Source: Pseudomonadota bacterium
GTDB taxonomy: Bacteria > Desulfobacterota > Syntrophorhabdia > Syntrophorhabdales > Syntrophorhabdaceae
Direction of reading: 5' to 3'
Assembly (NCBI GenBank): GCA_026388255.1
Contig: JAPLKC010000042.1
Location: 1-64,000 of the forward strand
Length of the DNA: 64,000 nt
Below the pieces are notes generated by a model. It saw only the letters and a program-made list of their open reading frames with translations. It made no database searches and had not been told where the DNA came from. Both the position numbers and the translations under genes were made by a program. Positions 6,907 through 51,893 of the stretch are shown piece after piece; position 1 is the stretch's first letter; every line of letters starts with the position of its first letter.

Positions 6907-7002
6907 ACCATTGTAATGCACGATGTGCGCATACCAGGCGCCGCAGGTTAAAACCGGTGACTACCGGCGGCTGTTAAAATAAGTTTTATAAGGTTGCTAA
7001 TT

Positions 7003-9597
7003 ATGAATGAAGTATTAAAAAACTCTGAAATCCAAAATCCAAGAAGGGTCTTCCTGGTTGACGGCCATTCTTACCTGTACAGGGCCTTCCATGCCACGCC
7101 GTATATGTCCAACTCGAAAGGCATACCAACCAATACTACATATGCCTTTATCAGTATGCTGAAGAAACTCCTGAACGAAGAAAAACCGGACACCCTGATT
7201 GTAGTATTCGACTCAAAGGCCCCGTCCTTCCGCGAAGAAATCTCGAAGGCATATAAAGCGCAGAGACCTCCCATGCCGGACAACCTTTCTGTCCAGATTC
7301 CATATGTAAAGATGGTCATGGAGGCTATGGGCATACCGGTACTTGAACAGGAGGGGTTTGAGGCCGACGATATTATCGGCACCATAACAGAAAAGTTCAG
7401 GGAAGAAAATGCACAGATATATATTGTTACAGGCGATAAAGATATGATGCAGCTCGTATCGGACAGGGTCTTTATCCGTGATACGATGAAAAACCTGTTA
7501 ATAGGGGAGCAGGAAGTAATAGAAAAATTCGGCGTTAAACCCGCCCTTATGACAGACTTTCTGGCATTATGCGGCGACGCCTCGGACAACATACCGGGCG
7601 TACCCGGTGTCGGTGAAAAGACGGCGAAAGAACTCATAGACAGCATAGGGTCAATCGACGAGATTTATGAGCGCCTTGAAGAAGTGAAAAAGGCATCGGT
7701 AAAAGAGAAACTTATTGCCGGCAAAGACCTGGCCTATATGAGCAAGGAGCTTGCAACGATCAGGCTGGATGTCCCTATAGGCAAGGAGGTTGAGCATCTG
7801 GTTCAAAAGGAAGAGGACTCCAATGCCTTAAGGAGAATTTACCGGGAGCTTGAGTTTACTTCGCTCTATAAGGAGATTGAGGCAAAGAACACAAAGAAAA
7901 AGGCATCGCAGGAAATAGAACTTTCCTCCTTAAAAAGAAAACGCGTGGCAATTGTTACAAGTTTTCAGGGTAAAAACCCCTATGACATACATTTGGACGG
8001 ATTTGCTGCATTTGACAATGAAGGAGTGTACTTCTCCCGGAATGAGGATGAGCTGGTTGACATCATAGGCAGTGCAGAAGAGATCGTAGTCCACAATATC
8101 AAACCGATTTTACTCTTTTCATTAAATAAAACCGAAGTTTTAAATCCTTTCACCGTTCACCTTTTACCTTTTACCTTTCACCGCTTTTTCGACACCATGC
8201 TCGCATCATATCTGCTCAACCCGCTGAGAAAAGACTATGGGATCGGCGCCATAGTAGAGGAGTATCTCGATGCAGATATATCTCCCGGTGATGCAAGACA
8301 TACCCTTACAGAAACCGTTCAATATCTCTTTGAGCTGAAAGACATACTGACTGAGAAAATGGAAGGGCTGGGCCTGGCAACCCTCTTTCGTACTGTAGAA
8401 ATACCCCTTGTAGAAGTTCTTGCCAGTATGGAATATGCCGGAGTAAAAGTCGACCGCAGGATGCTTGCCGAACTTTCAAGGGATTTTGACAAAAGGCTTA
8501 CCGGCATTATGAAGGAGATTTACAGCCTTTCAGGCGAGCCTTTCAACATTAACTCTCCACAGCAGCTTTCCCGCATCCTTTTTGAAAAGTTACAACTTCT
8601 GCCCGGTAAAAAAACAAAGACAGGCTATTCAACGGATATAGAGGTCCTTGAGAAACTCTCTTTGGTTCACCCGCTGCCAAAGGAGATTCTCGAATACAGG
8701 ACCCTTACCAAACTGAAGGGCACATATGTCGATGTCCTGCCCACCCTTATGAACCCTCATACAGGGAGGATCCACGCCTCTTTTAACCAGATGGTCGTTG
8801 CCACAGGGAGATTAAGCAGCAGCGATCCGAACCTCCAGAACATCCCCATACGGGGCGAAGAAGGAAGGAAAATACGTGAGGCTTTTGTACCCGAAGAAGG
8901 TTTTGTACTCCTTTCCTCGGATTATTCGCAGATAGAGCTGCGGATTCTTGCCCATATCTCGCAGGATGAGCTTTTGATTGATGCCTTTTTGAAGGATGAA
9001 GATATCCATACAAATGTAGCACGGGAGGTTTTCGGGGTACAGGCAGACGAGGTGACACAGGAGATGCGGAGGGCTGCAAAGGTGATAAATTTCGGGATAG
9101 TTTACGGCATGAGCGGCTACGGACTTTCGAAAGAGCTTGGCGTACCGCAAAGAGATGCCCAAAATTATATAGACGAGTACTTTGTAAGATATAAGGGCGT
9201 AAAAGCCTATATCGAGTCAGTGCTGGAAGAGACAAGATCAAGAGGTTTTGTAAGGACACTCCTTGGAAGGGTTCGTTATATACCGGAGATCAATAATCGT
9301 GATGCAACAATACGGCAGCTTGGCGAAAGGGCTGCCATGAATACGCCGATCCAGGGCACGGCAGCGGATATCATCAAAATGGCAATGGTGAATATTCACA
9401 GAAGGATCAAAGAAAACAACCTTGCCTCAAGGCTCATTATGCAGATTCACGATGAGCTTGTCTTTGAAGTGAAGCAGGATGAGCTTGCTGATATGGAGAA
9501 GATCGTAAGACATGAGATGGAGCATGTAATCAACCTTGCCGTACCCCTGAAGGTATCTCTCGGCAAGGGCAGGAACTGGACGGAAGCCCACGATTAG
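7003..9597 (+). CDS. polA: DNA polymerase I
   Basis: An 864-residue polymerase for Okazaki-fragment processing and repair. Domains: 5' nuclease (residues 8-290; FLVDGHSYLYRAFHA, EADDIIG, GDASDNIPGVPGVGEKTA), a degenerate 3'-5' exonuclease domain (about 300-450) that lacks the DxE metal ligands, and an intact family A polymerase (450-864) with motif A SSDYSQIELRILA, motif B RRAAKVINFGIVYG and motif C QIHDEL. So it should polymerise and remove primers but not proofread. ATG 7003 is chosen because AAGG lies about 9 bases ahead; an upstream TTG at 6994 is less likely. About 13 residues near 382-395 are encoded by a seven-base repeat array inserted in frame. Confidence 0.97.
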   Translation: MNEVLKNSEIQNPRRVFLVDGHSYLYRAFHATPYMSNSKGIPTNTTYAFISMLKKLLNEEKPDTLIVVFDSKAPSFREEISKAYKAQRPPMPDNLSVQIPYVKMVMEAMGIPVLEQEGFEADDIIGTITEKFREENAQIYIVTGDKDMMQLVSDRVFIRDTMKNLLIGEQEVIEKFGVKPALMTDFLALCGDASDNIPGVPGVGEKTAKELIDSIGSIDEIYERLEEVKKASVKEKLIAGKDLAYMSKELATIRLDVPIGKEVEHLVQKEEDSNALRRIYRELEFTSLYKEIEAKNTKKKASQEIELSSLKRKRVAIVTSFQGKNPYDIHLDGFAAFDNEGVYFSRNEDELVDIIGSAEEIVVHNIKPILLFSLNKTEVLNPFTVHLLPFTFHRFFDTMLASYLLNPLRKDYGIGAIVEEYLDADISPGDARHTLTETVQYLFELKDILTEKMEGLGLATLFRTVEIPLVEVLASMEYAGVKVDRRMLAELSRDFDKRLTGIMKEIYSLSGEPFNINSPQQLSRILFEKLQLLPGKKTKTGYSTDIEVLEKLSLVHPLPKEILEYRTLTKLKGTYVDVLPTLMNPHTGRIHASFNQMVVATGRLSSSDPNLQNIPIRGEEGRKIREAFVPEEGFVLLSSDYSQIELRILAHISQDELLIDAFLKDEDIHTNVAREVFGVQADEVTQEMRRAAKVINFGIVYGMSGYGLSKELGVPQRDAQNYIDEYFVRYKGVKAYIESVLEETRSRGFVRTLLGRVRYIPEINNRDATIRQLGERAAMNTPIQGTAADIIKMAMVNIHRRIKENNLASRLIMQIHDELVFEVKQDELADMEKIVRHEMEHVINLAVPLKVSLGKGRNWTEAHD
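8149..8183. repeat. Five seven-base units inside polA
   Basis: TTCACCG, TTCACCT, TTTACCT, TTTACCT, TTCACCG in direct succession, 35 bases in all. They encode FTVHLLPFTFHR in the vestigial exonuclease domain. The flanks (HNIKPILLF before, FDTMLASYLLNP after) are conserved in the family, so the array looks inserted between them. Confidence 0.75.
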
Positions 9598-22373: not shown

Positions 22374-22467
22374 TTTGGCTTGAGTTTATTTTAACAGAGG
22401 GGAATCTCAAAGTAAAGAAGGCTGGACATAAATTCATTTTCAGGTAAAATCTATAGTGATACCATTT

Positions 22468-23415
22468 ATGAAAATTATTGATATTCATACGCACGGAATA
22501 GGCGGTTACGATACAAAGACGACCATTGTGGAGCATATTCTAAAGATTGCAGAAATCCATGGCAGTCATGGTGTTTCAAAAATCCTGCCCGCAATTTATC
22601 CTGCTTCAATAGAGGAAATGCGCGCGCATACGATGACAGTAAAAAAGGCAATGGCTTTTCAAGATTCAAGGCCCGAAGTCCAGAGCACAAAGTTGGATAA
22701 TTCAACATTCAACATTCAACATTCAACATTCGGAGCGGATTCATATGAAGAAGCGAAGATAAATGGGGTTCACCTTGAAGGGCCTTTTCTCAACCCATCA
22801 CAATGCGGTACCCTGAATCCGTTATTGTTTTTAGATCCCACCCCGGATAACCTGAAAAGGCTTACAGAAGGATTTGAGGATATTATAAAAATTATTACCA
22901 TAGCGCCTGAATTGAATGGATCAACTAAGCTCATCAAGGCAATAGCCGACATGGGGATTATAGTCAGCATGGGACACTCCAATGCAACATATGAGGAAGC
23001 CCAAGCCGGTTTTCATGCAGGGGCAAGGGGTATTACGCATATCTTTAATGCAATGCGCGGTTTTCACCATAGAGAAACGGGCATTGCAGGTTTTGGACTT
23101 ACAAACCCCCATGTTTATATCGAGGTGATTGCAGACCCTTACCATCTCCACCAGGATACGATAAAACTGATTTTTACAGTAAAAAACCCTGAAAAGATTA
23201 TTATTATCTCAGATTCTGTAAAGGATACACTCAAAACTCAAAACTCAAAATTCGACAATGAATTCCAGAGTATAACAGATACCCACGGAAAGCTCAGGGG
23301 TGGCTCGACGACTATTATTGAGTCTGCAAGAAGACTTGTTGACATGAGTTACGAAGAAAACATTATCTCAAATTGTATCTCAAGAAACCCTGAGATGTAT
23401 CTCAATGGACGATGA
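22468..23415 (+). CDS. N-acetylglucosamine-6-phosphate deacetylase-like amidohydrolase
   Basis: A 315-residue metal-dependent amidohydrolase of the NagA family, expected to deacetylate GlcNAc-6-phosphate for amino-sugar or cell-wall recycling. Visible motifs: HTHG at the N-terminus, HLEGPF in the middle, GHSNAT (metal histidine), GITHIFNAMRGFHHRE, and ISDS with the catalytic aspartate. It is shorter than the usual 380 residues because the N-terminal beta-sandwich strands before HTHG are missing. ATG 22468 is preferred over GTG 22456. Two seven-base repeat arrays sit inside the gene, encoding NSTFNIQHST and KTQNSK. No sugar kinase or NagB gene is near. Confidence 0.8.
   Translation: MKIIDIHTHGIGGYDTKTTIVEHILKIAEIHGSHGVSKILPAIYPASIEEMRAHTMTVKKAMAFQDSRPEVQSTKLDNSTFNIQHSTFGADSYEEAKINGVHLEGPFLNPSQCGTLNPLLFLDPTPDNLKRLTEGFEDIIKIITIAPELNGSTKLIKAIADMGIIVSMGHSNATYEEAQAGFHAGARGITHIFNAMRGFHHRETGIAGFGLTNPHVYIEVIADPYHLHQDTIKLIFTVKNPEKIIIISDSVKDTLKTQNSKFDNEFQSITDTHGKLRGGSTTIIESARRLVDMSYEENIISNCISRNPEMYLNGR
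22700..22731. repeat. ATTCAAC x4 array inside the nagA-like gene
   Basis: Four exact copies of ATTCAAC followed by ATTC. It encodes a poorly conserved insert between the TIM-barrel start and the HLEGPF motif. Because the unit is seven bases, gain or loss of one unit would shift the frame. Confidence 0.9.
23230..23250. repeat. CTCAAAA x3 array inside the nagA-like gene
   Basis: Three exact copies of CTCAAAA just after the ISDS motif. It encodes TLKTQNSK and has the same seven-base period as the array 500 bases upstream, with a different unit. Confidence 0.85.
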
Positions 23416-48381: not shown

Positions 48382-50475
48382 ATGGAAGAACACATTACAA
48401 TTGATTATGCAGGCAGACCACTGACAATAAGCACAGGCGGTGTTGCAAAACAGGCAGATGGCAGCGTATTGGTTCAATACGGCGACACTGTAATGCTCGT
48501 TACAGCAGTTGCAGATAAAAGGCCTATTGACAGGGATTTTCTCCCCCTCACGGTAAATTACCAGGAGATGTCTTATGCTGCCGGAAGGATTCCCGGTGGT
48601 TTCTTGAGAAGAGAAGGGAGAACAACGGATAAAACAACACTTACATCCCGCCTTATAGACAGGGCGCTACGGCCGTTATTCCCAAAAAGTTTCAGGAATG
48701 AGACACAGATAATAGCCAACGTACTTTCGGTTGACCAGGAAAACGATCCTGTAATACTCGGTATCATCGGCGCTTCCTGCGCCCTTACTATTTCACAGAT
48801 ACCATTTGCCGGCCCCATAGCCGGCGTAAAAATAGGTAGAAAAGATGGATCCTTTATCATAAATCCTTCTAATGCTGATCTGGAAGAAAGCGATATTGAT
48901 ATAATAGTAGCGGGTACAAAAGAAGCGATACTTATGGTTGAAGGTGCAGCAGAATTTGCACCCAGCAGCGACCTGATTGAGGCAATTCATTTCGGTCACC
49001 AAAGCCTGTTACCGTTGATAGAATGTCAGGAAAAGTTAAGGGAGTTATGCGGGAAGGAAAAGTGGGTTGTTCGGGAAATGGAAATTCCCTATGGACTGAA
49101 AGATGAAATAAAAGGAAAAATCGAGCAAGACCTGCTGGAAGCCTTTGCTATAAGGAGTAAGCTTGATAGATACGGCAGGCAGGATGAGATACGTGATAAA
49201 CTGGTAAAAGAGTATGAGGGTACGGAAGCAAGTATCCTGAACAAGATATTTGAAGACATAACAAGGGATATCCTGCGGCAGCAACTCCTTGCAACCAGGA
49301 AAAGAATAGACGGGAGATCGCCTGACGAAGTAAGGAATATTACCTGCAAAACCGGTGTGCTTCCAAGGACACATGGCTCAGCCATTTTCACAAGGGGAGA
49401 GACCCAGGCGCTTGCAATAACGACCCTTGGAACCTCTAGTGACGAACAGAAAGTTGAATCCCTCCAGGAAGGGGAATTATACAAAACCTTCATGCTGCAC
49501 TATAACTTCCCGCCCTTTTCAGTGGGCGAAGTAGGCATGCTCAGGGCGCCGTCGAGACGTGAGATAGGCCACGGCAACCTTGCCTTAAGGGCCCTTACTC
49601 CAATGCTGCCCACGAAAGATGATTTTCCTTACACGATAAGGATAGTATCGGAAATCCTCGAATCTAACGGTTCATCATCTATGGCAACCGTCTGCGCCGG
49701 GTGTTTGTCGCTTATGGACGCAGGGGCGCCGATAAAAGAACCTGTAGCAGGTATTGCAATGGGTCTTGTAAAAGAAGGCGAAGTGGAAATAGTCCTCACC
49801 GATATACTGGGCGATGAAGACCATCTTGGTGATATGGATTTCAAGGTCGCAGGGTCAAAAAGAGGCATTACCGCCATCCAGATGGACATAAAGATAAAAG
49901 GGATAACCAAAGAAATTATGTCAAAGGCGGTCACCCAGGCCCAGGAAGGTATAGAAAAGATACTCGGCATAATGGCCGAAACATTGCCGGGCCCAAGGGA
50001 ATCGCTATCCCCGTACGCACCGAGGATGTTTACCATCAGAATAAATACCGACAAGATACGGGATGTTATAGGTCCCGGCGGAAAAATGATAAGGAGTATC
50101 GTAGAGCAGACAGGCGTGAAAATAGATATAGAAGATTCAGGCATTGTTACGATTGCATCGCCCGATGAAGATTCTGCAGCCAAGGCAATAGAAATAATCA
50201 GAAAACTGACCAAAGAAGTTGAAATAGGCGAGACATACTTCGGTAAGGTTGTAAAGGTCTTAGATGCAGGTGTTATTGTCGAATTAGCGCCCGGAGTGGA
50301 TGGTTTTGTCCATATCAGCCAGCTTGCCGACGGCTACATAAAAAAGACATCGGATGTTGTCAGAGAGGGCGACGAGTTTATGGTGAAAGTCATAGCTGTT
50401 GAACCTAACGGCAGAATCAAGCTGTCACGGAAGGCATTACTGAATGAAGAGAAGGGCTGGCAAAAGGATGCATGA
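48382..50475 (+). CDS. pnp: Polyribonucleotide nucleotidyltransferase
   Basis: A 697-residue phosphorolytic 3'-5' exoribonuclease and core of the RNA degradosome. Two RNase PH-like domains (residues 10-220 and 310-540; GGFLRREGRTTDKTTLTSRL, and DILGDEDHLGDMDFKVAGSK in the active half), a KH domain with IGPGGKMIRSI and a C-terminal S1 domain (YFGKVVKVLDAGVIVELAPG). Follows rpsO by 22 bases. Confidence 0.98.
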   Translation: MEEHITIDYAGRPLTISTGGVAKQADGSVLVQYGDTVMLVTAVADKRPIDRDFLPLTVNYQEMSYAAGRIPGGFLRREGRTTDKTTLTSRLIDRALRPLFPKSFRNETQIIANVLSVDQENDPVILGIIGASCALTISQIPFAGPIAGVKIGRKDGSFIINPSNADLEESDIDIIVAGTKEAILMVEGAAEFAPSSDLIEAIHFGHQSLLPLIECQEKLRELCGKEKWVVREMEIPYGLKDEIKGKIEQDLLEAFAIRSKLDRYGRQDEIRDKLVKEYEGTEASILNKIFEDITRDILRQQLLATRKRIDGRSPDEVRNITCKTGVLPRTHGSAIFTRGETQALAITTLGTSSDEQKVESLQEGELYKTFMLHYNFPPFSVGEVGMLRAPSRREIGHGNLALRALTPMLPTKDDFPYTIRIVSEILESNGSSSMATVCAGCLSLMDAGAPIKEPVAGIAMGLVKEGEVEIVLTDILGDEDHLGDMDFKVAGSKRGITAIQMDIKIKGITKEIMSKAVTQAQEGIEKILGIMAETLPGPRESLSPYAPRMFTIRINTDKIRDVIGPGGKMIRSIVEQTGVKIDIEDSGIVTIASPDEDSAAKAIEIIRKLTKEVEIGETYFGKVVKVLDAGVIVELAPGVDGFVHISQLADGYIKKTSDVVREGDEFMVKVIAVEPNGRIKLSRKALLNEEKGWQKDA

Positions 50476-50490
50476 TAGCTTCCCAATAGA

Positions 50491-50603
50491 ATTCAGGAGT
50501 CAGAATTAAGAATCTTGAATAAAAGATTCAGAATTCTTTCTGATTCCTGACCGCCAATCCTTGAATCCTGGATTCTATCTGATGTATTCTGAATCCTATG
50601 TCA
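50491..50603. repeat. Sixteen seven-base units between pnp and the M16 gene
   Basis: ATTCAGG, AGTCAGA, ATTAAGA, ATCTTGA, ATAAAAG, ATTCAGA, ATTCTTT, one C, then TGATTCC, TGACCGC, CAATCCT, TGAATCC, TGGATTC, TATCTGA, TGTATTC, TGAATCC, TATGTCA. The second half is roughly the reverse complement of the first, so the RNA can fold into a long imperfect hairpin. It fills the whole gap. Confidence 0.85.
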
Positions 50604-50624
50604 TATATAAGGACAATAAAATAA

Positions 50625-51893
50625 ATGTATAGAAAAACATCCTTACCAAACGGTATCACCATAGTAACCGAGTCTATTCCATATTTTCCAACCGTATCCA
50701 TGGGGCTATGGCTAAAAACAGGGGGAAGGCACGAAAATGAGTTAAACAACGGTATTTCCCATTTTATAGAGCACATGCTTTTTAAAGGGACGTCAAAACG
50801 CACTGCCTTTGATATAGCAAAGGATATGGATGCTGTCGGAGGAACAATAAATGCATTCACCGGAAAAGAATATACCTGCTTCTATGCACGGACGCTGAGA
50901 AAAGATATGGACCTTGCCTTTGATGTATTATCCGATATGCATAAACATTCGCTTTTTAAAGATGACGACATCGAAAAAGAAAAATATGTAATCATGCAGG
51001 AAGTAAAGATGATCGAGGATAACCCGGAAGAATATATATACGATATGTTCAATGCATCTTACTTTAAGGGACATCCTCTCGGATTGCCGATCCTCGGCAA
51101 AGAGGTGAACATAGAGCACTTTACAAGGGATGCGCTCGTAGAACATCTTGCAACTTATTATTCACCGGACAACCTGATTATAACCGCAACCGGTAGAATT
51201 AACCATGATATGTTTGTGGAAAAAGTAGGAAAGTTTTTTTGTGATGTAAAAAAACAGGACATTCAGAAGACGCCTATAATTGAACCGGTCCCCTATAAAA
51301 ATATGAATATTTACGAAAGGGACCTTGAACATATGTATCTCTGCATCGGAACAAAAGGTGTAAGCCAGGTTGACAAGCGGAGATATGCTCTTTATGTGCT
51401 GAACGCTATTATGGGTGGAAGCATGAGCTCGCATCTTTTCCAGGAGGTGAGAGAGAAAAGGGGACTTGTCTATAACATTTATTCTTACGTTAATTGCTAC
51501 CATGATACTGGCACATTCGGCATATCCACCTCAACGTCACAGGAGTCAATGAAAGAAGTGATAACCCTTGTAAAAGAAGAAATAGAAAGGATACGGGACA
51601 ACGGTATCACTGAAAGCGAGCTTGCCTTCTCAAAGGAACACATCAAAGGGAATCTCTTTATATCGCTGGAAAGCTCTGAAGCAAGAATGGGGAGACTCGC
51701 AAAAAACGAGATTTATTTCGGTGAATACATACCCCTGAAGGAGACTATCCGGGAGATAGACAGTATTAAAAAATCCGAGGTAGACAGTATAGGAAGGGAA
51801 ATTTTTGAGGATCCACAAAATATACCCCTTACAATACTTGGCAGAATAAAAAAAGCAGATGAAAACAATGTTAAAGCGATATGGAAGAACTGA
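50625..51893 (+). CDS. M16-family zinc peptidase
   Basis: A 422-residue peptidase of the pitrilysin/processing-peptidase family. The inverted zinc motif [11 protein letters not shown] (His-x-x-Glu-His) is at about residues 46-56, with the distal glutamate in the [19 protein letters not shown] stretch. The C-terminal domain has the [20 protein letters not shown] block. Such genes sit between pnp and dut in many bacteria; the substrate is unknown. Its start is 22 bases past the seven-base array and its end overlaps dut. Confidence 0.93.

What the first reader, a model, noticed from the sequence alone, without database searches (positions are those of the whole stretch)
50491..50603. Sixteen-unit heptad hairpin between pnp and the M16 gene
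The array is 113 bases long, keeps register for seven units, skips one base at the turn, and continues as its own reverse complement for nine. It lies right after pnp, whose product trims RNA 3' ends and is stopped by hairpins, so it might set mRNA decay between the two genes.
Basis: partly seen in the sequence, partly recalled or inferred. Interest (0 to 1): 0.5.

Follow-up and report, generated by a model that had tools for sequence, protein, structure and literature searches.

The report
Seven-base-repeat hairpin between two genes
A stretch of degenerate seven-base repeats that turns back on itself sits between the pnp and M16 peptidase genes; it belongs to a family of similar repeats found between genes in many bacteria, and its central hairpin looks preserved by selection while the rest decays.

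Summary
The array is real: 51% of bases match seven bases on, and 0 of 5000 shuffles of the gap reach its lag-7 count. "Sixteen units" is generous: 14 of 16 match the unit at 5 of 7 or better, 9 at 6 or better, and only 50493-50550 forms a strong hairpin. pnp and the M16 gene adjoin in 30 of 30 loci examined (this genome and 29 relatives), 24 with gaps of -26 to 18 bases; only this genome and its one congener carry the array. So it arrived in the genus and is no general part of pnp control. Between the two species the stem region is 48/51 identical (paired bases alone 43/48), the distal heptads 31/53, fourfold sites 186/312. The unit KWCAGRA matches, in reverse complement, MTYCTGA, published as paired "class 3" sites of Geobacter metallireducens. 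Inverted KWCAGRA pairs occur in 34 of 395 genomes of the phylum (215 matches, control 0), mostly between genes. No T-run follows, so it is no intrinsic terminator. Best guess: a dispersed repeat whose hairpin was kept as an mRNA processing or stability element; that RNA role is inferred.

The parts
48382..50475 (+). pnp, polyribonucleotide nucleotidyltransferase; the array starts just after its stop codon
   Evidence: Pfam RNase_PH, RNase_PH_C, PNPase, KH_1 and S1 domains
50485..50533 (+). seven forward heptads (KWCAGRA register), scores 5,7,7,6,4,5,7 of 7
50493..50550 (+). core stem-loop (13+5+6 pairs, -26.7 kcal/mol), the conserved part
   Evidence: arm regions 50492-50515 and 50524-50550 48/51 identical in the sister species, paired bases alone 43/48
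50538..50600 (+). nine inverted heptads (TYCTGWM register), scores 6,7,2,5,6,6,5,7,5 of 7; only the first two lie in the core stem
   Evidence: distal part 50551-50603 is 31/53 identical in the sister species
50604..50624 (+). leader of the M16 gene with a ribosome-binding-site-like AAGGA
   Evidence: 50604-50627 is 22/24 identical in the sister species; the reading as a binding site is inference
50625..51893 (+). M16-family peptidase gene, co-directional
   Evidence: Pfam Peptidase_M16 and Peptidase_M16_C

Best explanation
It is one copy of a dispersed, degenerate heptanucleotide repeat (unit KWCAGRA, reverse complement TYCTGWM) arranged as two inverted tandem arms. Shown: it is absent from the same gene junction in 28 other relatives examined and present in this genome and its one congener, so it was most simply gained in this genus; its central stem is conserved between the two while the distal heptads diverge as fast as synonymous sites; similar elements in the phylum lie almost only between genes and show no sense-side T-run. 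Inferred: the element entered or grew in the pnp-M16 junction as a non-coding repeat, and its hairpin was then retained because the transcript uses it as an intercistronic processing or 3'-end-protecting stem-loop between the pnp and M16 parts of the message.
For: Periodicity and inversion. pnp-M16 adjacency in 30 of 30 loci (own and 29 relatives), 24 of 30 with gaps of -26 to 18 nt, array only in G000 and G001 (loci of 30 of the 39 genomes with a match were fetched). Stem region 48/51 against fourfold sites 186/312 (p = 2e-7) and against distal 31/53 (p = 2e-5); distal against fourfold p = 0.88; with only the bases paired in the G000 fold, 43/48 against fourfold p = 2e-5. A second hairpin in the same genome, 20-22 nt after a rubrerythrin gene, also kept in G001, with two A-to-G changes that stay paired in the sense RNA. 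Family: inverted pattern in 34 of 395 phylum genomes, 215 matches against 0 control; of 94 distinct elements from 90 loci 2 lie inside an ORF, 59 tandem, 18 convergent, 9 divergent, 6 at contig edges; convergent/divergent 18/9 against 11/18 in other gaps of the same loci, p = 0.04.
Against: Only two species and two loci support constraint on the stem, and I set the stem boundaries after both sequences had been seen, so the p-values flatter it. Across 59 tandem elements of the phylum the sense RNA is no more stable than the antisense (29 against 29), so the family as a whole shows no sign of RNA-level selection. The strict inverted-pair pattern matches neither the window array nor G001. The position analysis uses a crude ORF caller. 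No empty site with a target duplication was found, so insertion as a unit is not shown.
Confidence: 0.53

Rival explanations
1. A non-functional relic of a repeat that spreads or expands between genes; the hairpin is a by-product of inverted arms and does nothing at this site.
For: Distal heptads drift at the synonymous rate; no sense-strand bias in 59 elements; near-identical inner sequences at several places in G009 and in G017, and a shared inner sequence in G085, G120 and G148 at places whose flanks share no protein match, point to copying; in named genomes 26 of 59 mixed-unit arrays have an inverted partner within 170 bp, control 0.
Against: The stem is 48/51 identical while distal and synonymous sites are about 60%; both hairpins of this genome are kept in the congener.
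Confidence: 0.32
2. A DNA-level site: tandem heptads bound by a nucleoid or regulator protein, as proposed for the class 3 sites of Geobacter metallireducens (IHF/HU).
For: Same heptad consensus and opposite-strand pairing as described in PMC2700814; three heptads make 21 bp, about two helical turns (inference).
Against: The distal heptads are not conserved; elements tend to avoid divergent gaps, where promoters lie; no binding data in the passages I read.
Confidence: 0.12
3. An intrinsic terminator or attenuator that cuts M16 expression off from pnp.
For: Stable stem after a stop codon.
Against: At most 3 T in any 8 bases of the 16 after the stem; the terminator scan of 50300-50800 found one site, inside pnp, none here; over 59 tandem elements T-runs follow on the antisense side in 26 and on the sense side in 22.
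Confidence: 0.03

Closest known systems
Geobacter metallireducens class 3 predicted global regulator-binding sites (PMC2700814, legend of Additional file 9, Figure S5)
   Same: Tandem heptanucleotides with consensus MTYCTGA, which is the reverse complement of the unit here in shifted register (W for A); drawn as a sequence that loops and switches strand; multicopy
   Different: There 15 of 16 sites have five units and the set is called unique to that genome; here seven plus nine degenerate units, and the same unit recurs in many genomes. The 16 published sequences were not compared directly
TAACTGA direct repeats of marine Beggiatoaceae (PMC4679880, abstract and outline seen)
   Same: Intergenic heptamer arrays in many copies, patchy across phyla
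   Different: Other sequence (no TAACTGA in the array); 169 direct sets and one indirect in that genome; most lie just upstream of start codons
Heptanucleotide stem of the Nostoc tRNA-Leu intron P6b (PMC4476775, passages seen)
   Same: Degenerate seven-base units that form and lengthen an RNA stem
   Different: Inside a group I intron; motifs TDNGATT or NNTGAGT, which occur 1 and 0 times in the array on both strands together
REP / REPIN palindromes (PMC3733652, PMC3116915: search listing only)
   Same: Dispersed extragenic palindromes
   Different: No GTAG or CGTC beside the stem here; built from heptads; 0 of 188 flanks with CGTC and 6 with GTAG across the 94 elements

Membership tests
G. metallireducens class 3 sites | heptad consensus MTYCTGA | tested here: met
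   4 exact MTYCTGA in the 119 bases 50485-50603, of 51 in the 64 kb window, both strands; legend quoted
G. metallireducens class 3 sites | tandem units, paired on opposite strands | tested here: met
   seven forward then nine inverted units, uneven
G. metallireducens class 3 sites | alignment to the 16 published sites | not tested
   supplementary sequences and that genome were not read
G. metallireducens class 3 sites | bound by IHF/HU | not testable with these tools
   a proposal in the paper
REP / REPIN | GTAG or CGTC tag next to the palindrome (tags recalled; PMC3733652 listing) | tested here: not met
   none beside the window stem; 6 GTAG and 0 CGTC in 188 flanks
REP / REPIN | association with a RAYT-type Y1 transposase (recalled) | tested here: inconclusive
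Intrinsic terminator | T-run right after the stem | tested here: not met
   at most 3 T in 8; 22 sense against 26 antisense of 59
Nostoc P6b heptad stem | group I intron with TDNGATT or NNTGAGT units | tested here: not met
   1 and 0 motif matches; no Rfam family at gathering score in the window
TAACTGA repeats | TAACTGA direct repeats | tested here: not met
   0 matches

The most novel reading that the evidence does not exclude
KWCAGRA heptad hairpins are one bacterial element spread over many phyla: a seven-base unit that grows in inverted pairs between genes by a copying process not yet described, reaching about a hundred hairpin matches in a single genome, and from which cells now and then keep a stem as an mRNA element, as between pnp and the M16 gene here.
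Probability: 0.3. Interest if true: 0.65.

Novelty: new member of a known kind. Interest (0 to 1): 0.35.

Why it matters
The single array is modest: one more copy of an under-described heptad repeat. The wider pattern is more interesting: the same degenerate unit with an inverted partner turns up in records labelled Nostoc, Clostridiales, Pelotomaculum, Acidobacteria, Desulfovibrio, Lentisphaeria and others, and in what my paper searches returned (open-access library only, few papers opened) I saw no account of what makes it. The two species of this genus also give a small test case in which the kept part (the stem) and the decaying part (the outer heptads) of one element can be told apart.

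Tried and rejected
PNPase-specific control: rejected, since 28 of 29 relatives examined keep the gene pair without the array.

Intrinsic terminator: rejected.

Known RNA family: no match at gathering score in the whole window; with the lax threshold two minus-strand matches at E 0.2 and 0.39, far below their gathering scores, taken as chance.

RNA-level selection in the whole family: tested by comparing sense with antisense fold in 59 tandem elements; no difference, 29 against 29. This counts against extending the RNA reading beyond this genus.

Orthologous elements in another genus for a further constraint test: G122 and G150 share two loci and are about 96% identical where they align; at one locus the element is nearly identical along with its neighbourhood, at the other the element region aligns poorly, so neither separates stem from background.

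Link with a Y1 transposase: positive but not controlled for kinship; left open.

Literature: six motif strings searched in full text gave 5 papers, none on bacterial repeats by title; heptamer and heptanucleotide searches gave the papers named here. PMC2700814: passages and section 14. PMC4679880: abstract and outline. PMC4476775: passages. PMC3733652 and PMC3116915: search listing only. The STRR repeats of cyanobacteria are recalled, not read.

A lag scan of G000 stretches was swamped by withheld runs of N; no genome-wide count was drawn from it.

Mended on checking: the runner-up score first taken (68) overlapped the array; the non-overlapping one is 65. The background gaps (54 tandem, 12 convergent, 22 divergent) counted gaps of loci with two elements twice; counted once they are 43, 11 and 18, and p rises from 0.02 to 0.04.

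Full report
What is there. Between the stop codon of pnp (50475) and the start of the M16 peptidase gene (50625) lie 149 bases with a clear seven-base period. In 50486-50606, 58 of 114 positions match seven bases on, against 21-30% at lags that are not multiples of seven. For the whole gap, 0 of 5000 dinucleotide shuffles reach the lag-7 count of 64, nor that fraction at any lag from 4 to 21. The units follow KWCAGRA for seven steps and then its reverse complement TYCTGWM for nine; 14 of 16 units match at 5 of 7 or better and 9 of 16 at 6 or better. The combined score is 90 of 112; the next best non-overlapping place in the window scores 65 and the backwards control at most 70. Gene identities were checked with Pfam.

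Structure. The predicted RNA folds at -37.4 kcal/mol for 156 bases, z = -3.13, none of 200 shuffles as stable. The strong part is 50493-50550, -26.7 kcal/mol. Most of the inverted heptads lie outside it. The stem begins after 17 bases from the pnp stop and ends 74 bases before the M16 start, and no T-run follows.

History. The M16 protein was sought in 40 genomes, this one included; 39 matched and loci of the best 30 were fetched. In all 30 (own and 29 relatives) pnp lies directly upstream. The gap is -26 to 18 bases in 24 of 30 and over 50 in six; of those six only G000 and its one congener G001 have the heptad array. G009 carries a different palindromic insert in the same gap, so the junction tolerates inserts.

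Constraint. Between G000 and G001 the stem region (50492-50515 and 50524-50550) is 48/51 identical, the loop 5/8, the 5' flank 10/16, the distal heptads 31/53, the M16 leader 22/24, and fourfold sites of the two flanking genes 103/178 and 83/134, together 186/312. Stem against fourfold p = 2e-7, stem against distal p = 2e-5, distal against fourfold p = 0.88. I had seen both sequences before setting these boundaries; with only the bases paired in the G000 fold the count is 43/48, p = 2e-5 against fourfold sites. A second hairpin with a near-identical stem lies at C36:8633-8682, just after a rubrerythrin gene. It too is kept in G001, where two A-to-G changes in the stem stay paired as G-U in the sense RNA but not on the other strand: -25.8 against -15.8 kcal/mol; for G000 -24.5 against -22.2; at pnp -26.7 against -23.1 (G000) and -25.4 against -17.8 (G001). 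This is suggestive, from two loci and two species.

Family. Four KWCAGRA units with up to 2 mismatches occur in 88 of 395 genomes of the phylum, 2450 matches against 318 for the backwards control in 38 genomes. The control is not empty: it nearly equals the signal in G007 (87 against 91) and exceeds it in some genomes (G187, 63 against 0; G207, 26 against 21; G169, 17 against 1), so other heptads exist too. The stricter inverted pattern occurs in 34 of 395 genomes, 215 matches on one strand (overlapping starts counted) against 0 control, 103 of them in G333. Of these 120 stretches, 59 have mixed units and 61 uniform ones; an inverted partner lies within 170 bp in 26 and 9, control 0 and 0. The uniform ones may be plain slippage products. 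In viral contigs the pattern gave 23 stretches and the backwards control 2.

Position. From 90 fetched loci I took 94 distinct inverted elements, many from a few rich genomes (G333, G122, G150): 59 between tandem genes, 18 convergent, 9 divergent, 6 at contig edges, 2 inside an ORF. Other gaps of at least 80 bases in the same loci, counted once: 43 tandem, 11 convergent, 18 divergent; convergent against divergent p = 0.04. In tandem gaps 39 of 59 lie nearer the stop than the start, p = 0.02. T-runs follow on the sense side in 22 and on the antisense side in 26 of 59. Sense and antisense RNA are equally stable (29 against 29). So the family looks like an intergenic palindromic repeat without a shown RNA role, and the case for function rests on this genus.

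Known relatives. The Geobacter metallireducens genome paper describes class 3 sites, 15 of 16 made of five tandem heptanucleotides MTYCTGA, drawn as sequences that loop and switch strand, and suggests that IHF/HU proteins may recognise them (PMC2700814). The reverse complement of KWCAGRA, shifted by one base, is MTYCTGW. By that letter comparison the array is of the same kind; the published sequences were not aligned. REP elements differ by their tags. Inner sequences shared at different places in G009 and G017, and in G085, G120 and G148, indicate copying. A Y1 transposase is commoner in hairpin genomes (32 of 34 against 256 of 361), but kinship was not corrected and G001 has none.

Verdict.

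Noticed in passing
window 22700-22731 and 23229-23250: Two more heptad arrays (ATTCAAC x4.6 and ACTCAAA x3.1) lie inside one ORF with a weak, below-cut-off amidohydrolase match, 22456-23415, and encode NSTFNIQHSTF and KTQNSKF in loops of variable length; the first peptide is identical in the congener.
   Followed up: partly
window 8146-8182: CCTTTCA x5.3 lies inside polA (6994-9597) and encodes a linker whose length varies among relatives.
   Followed up: partly
window 8146, 22700, 23229, 39649, 50491: The heptads of these separate arrays share a YTCA core (TTCAGAA, TTCAACA, CTCAAAA, TTCACCT, TTCAACC). This was seen after the fact and not tested; it may hint at one process making them.
   Followed up: no
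G009, locus L032 1381-1500: A different insert with two palindromes (one of them GATTCCCACGGGC/GCCCGTGGGAATC) fills the same pnp-M16 gap in another genus.
   Followed up: no
G333, for example C115:5994-6047 (in L290): Several heptad hairpins there carry a second palindrome, TCCGCC...GGCGGA, in the loop, as if one repeat had nested in another.
   Followed up: no
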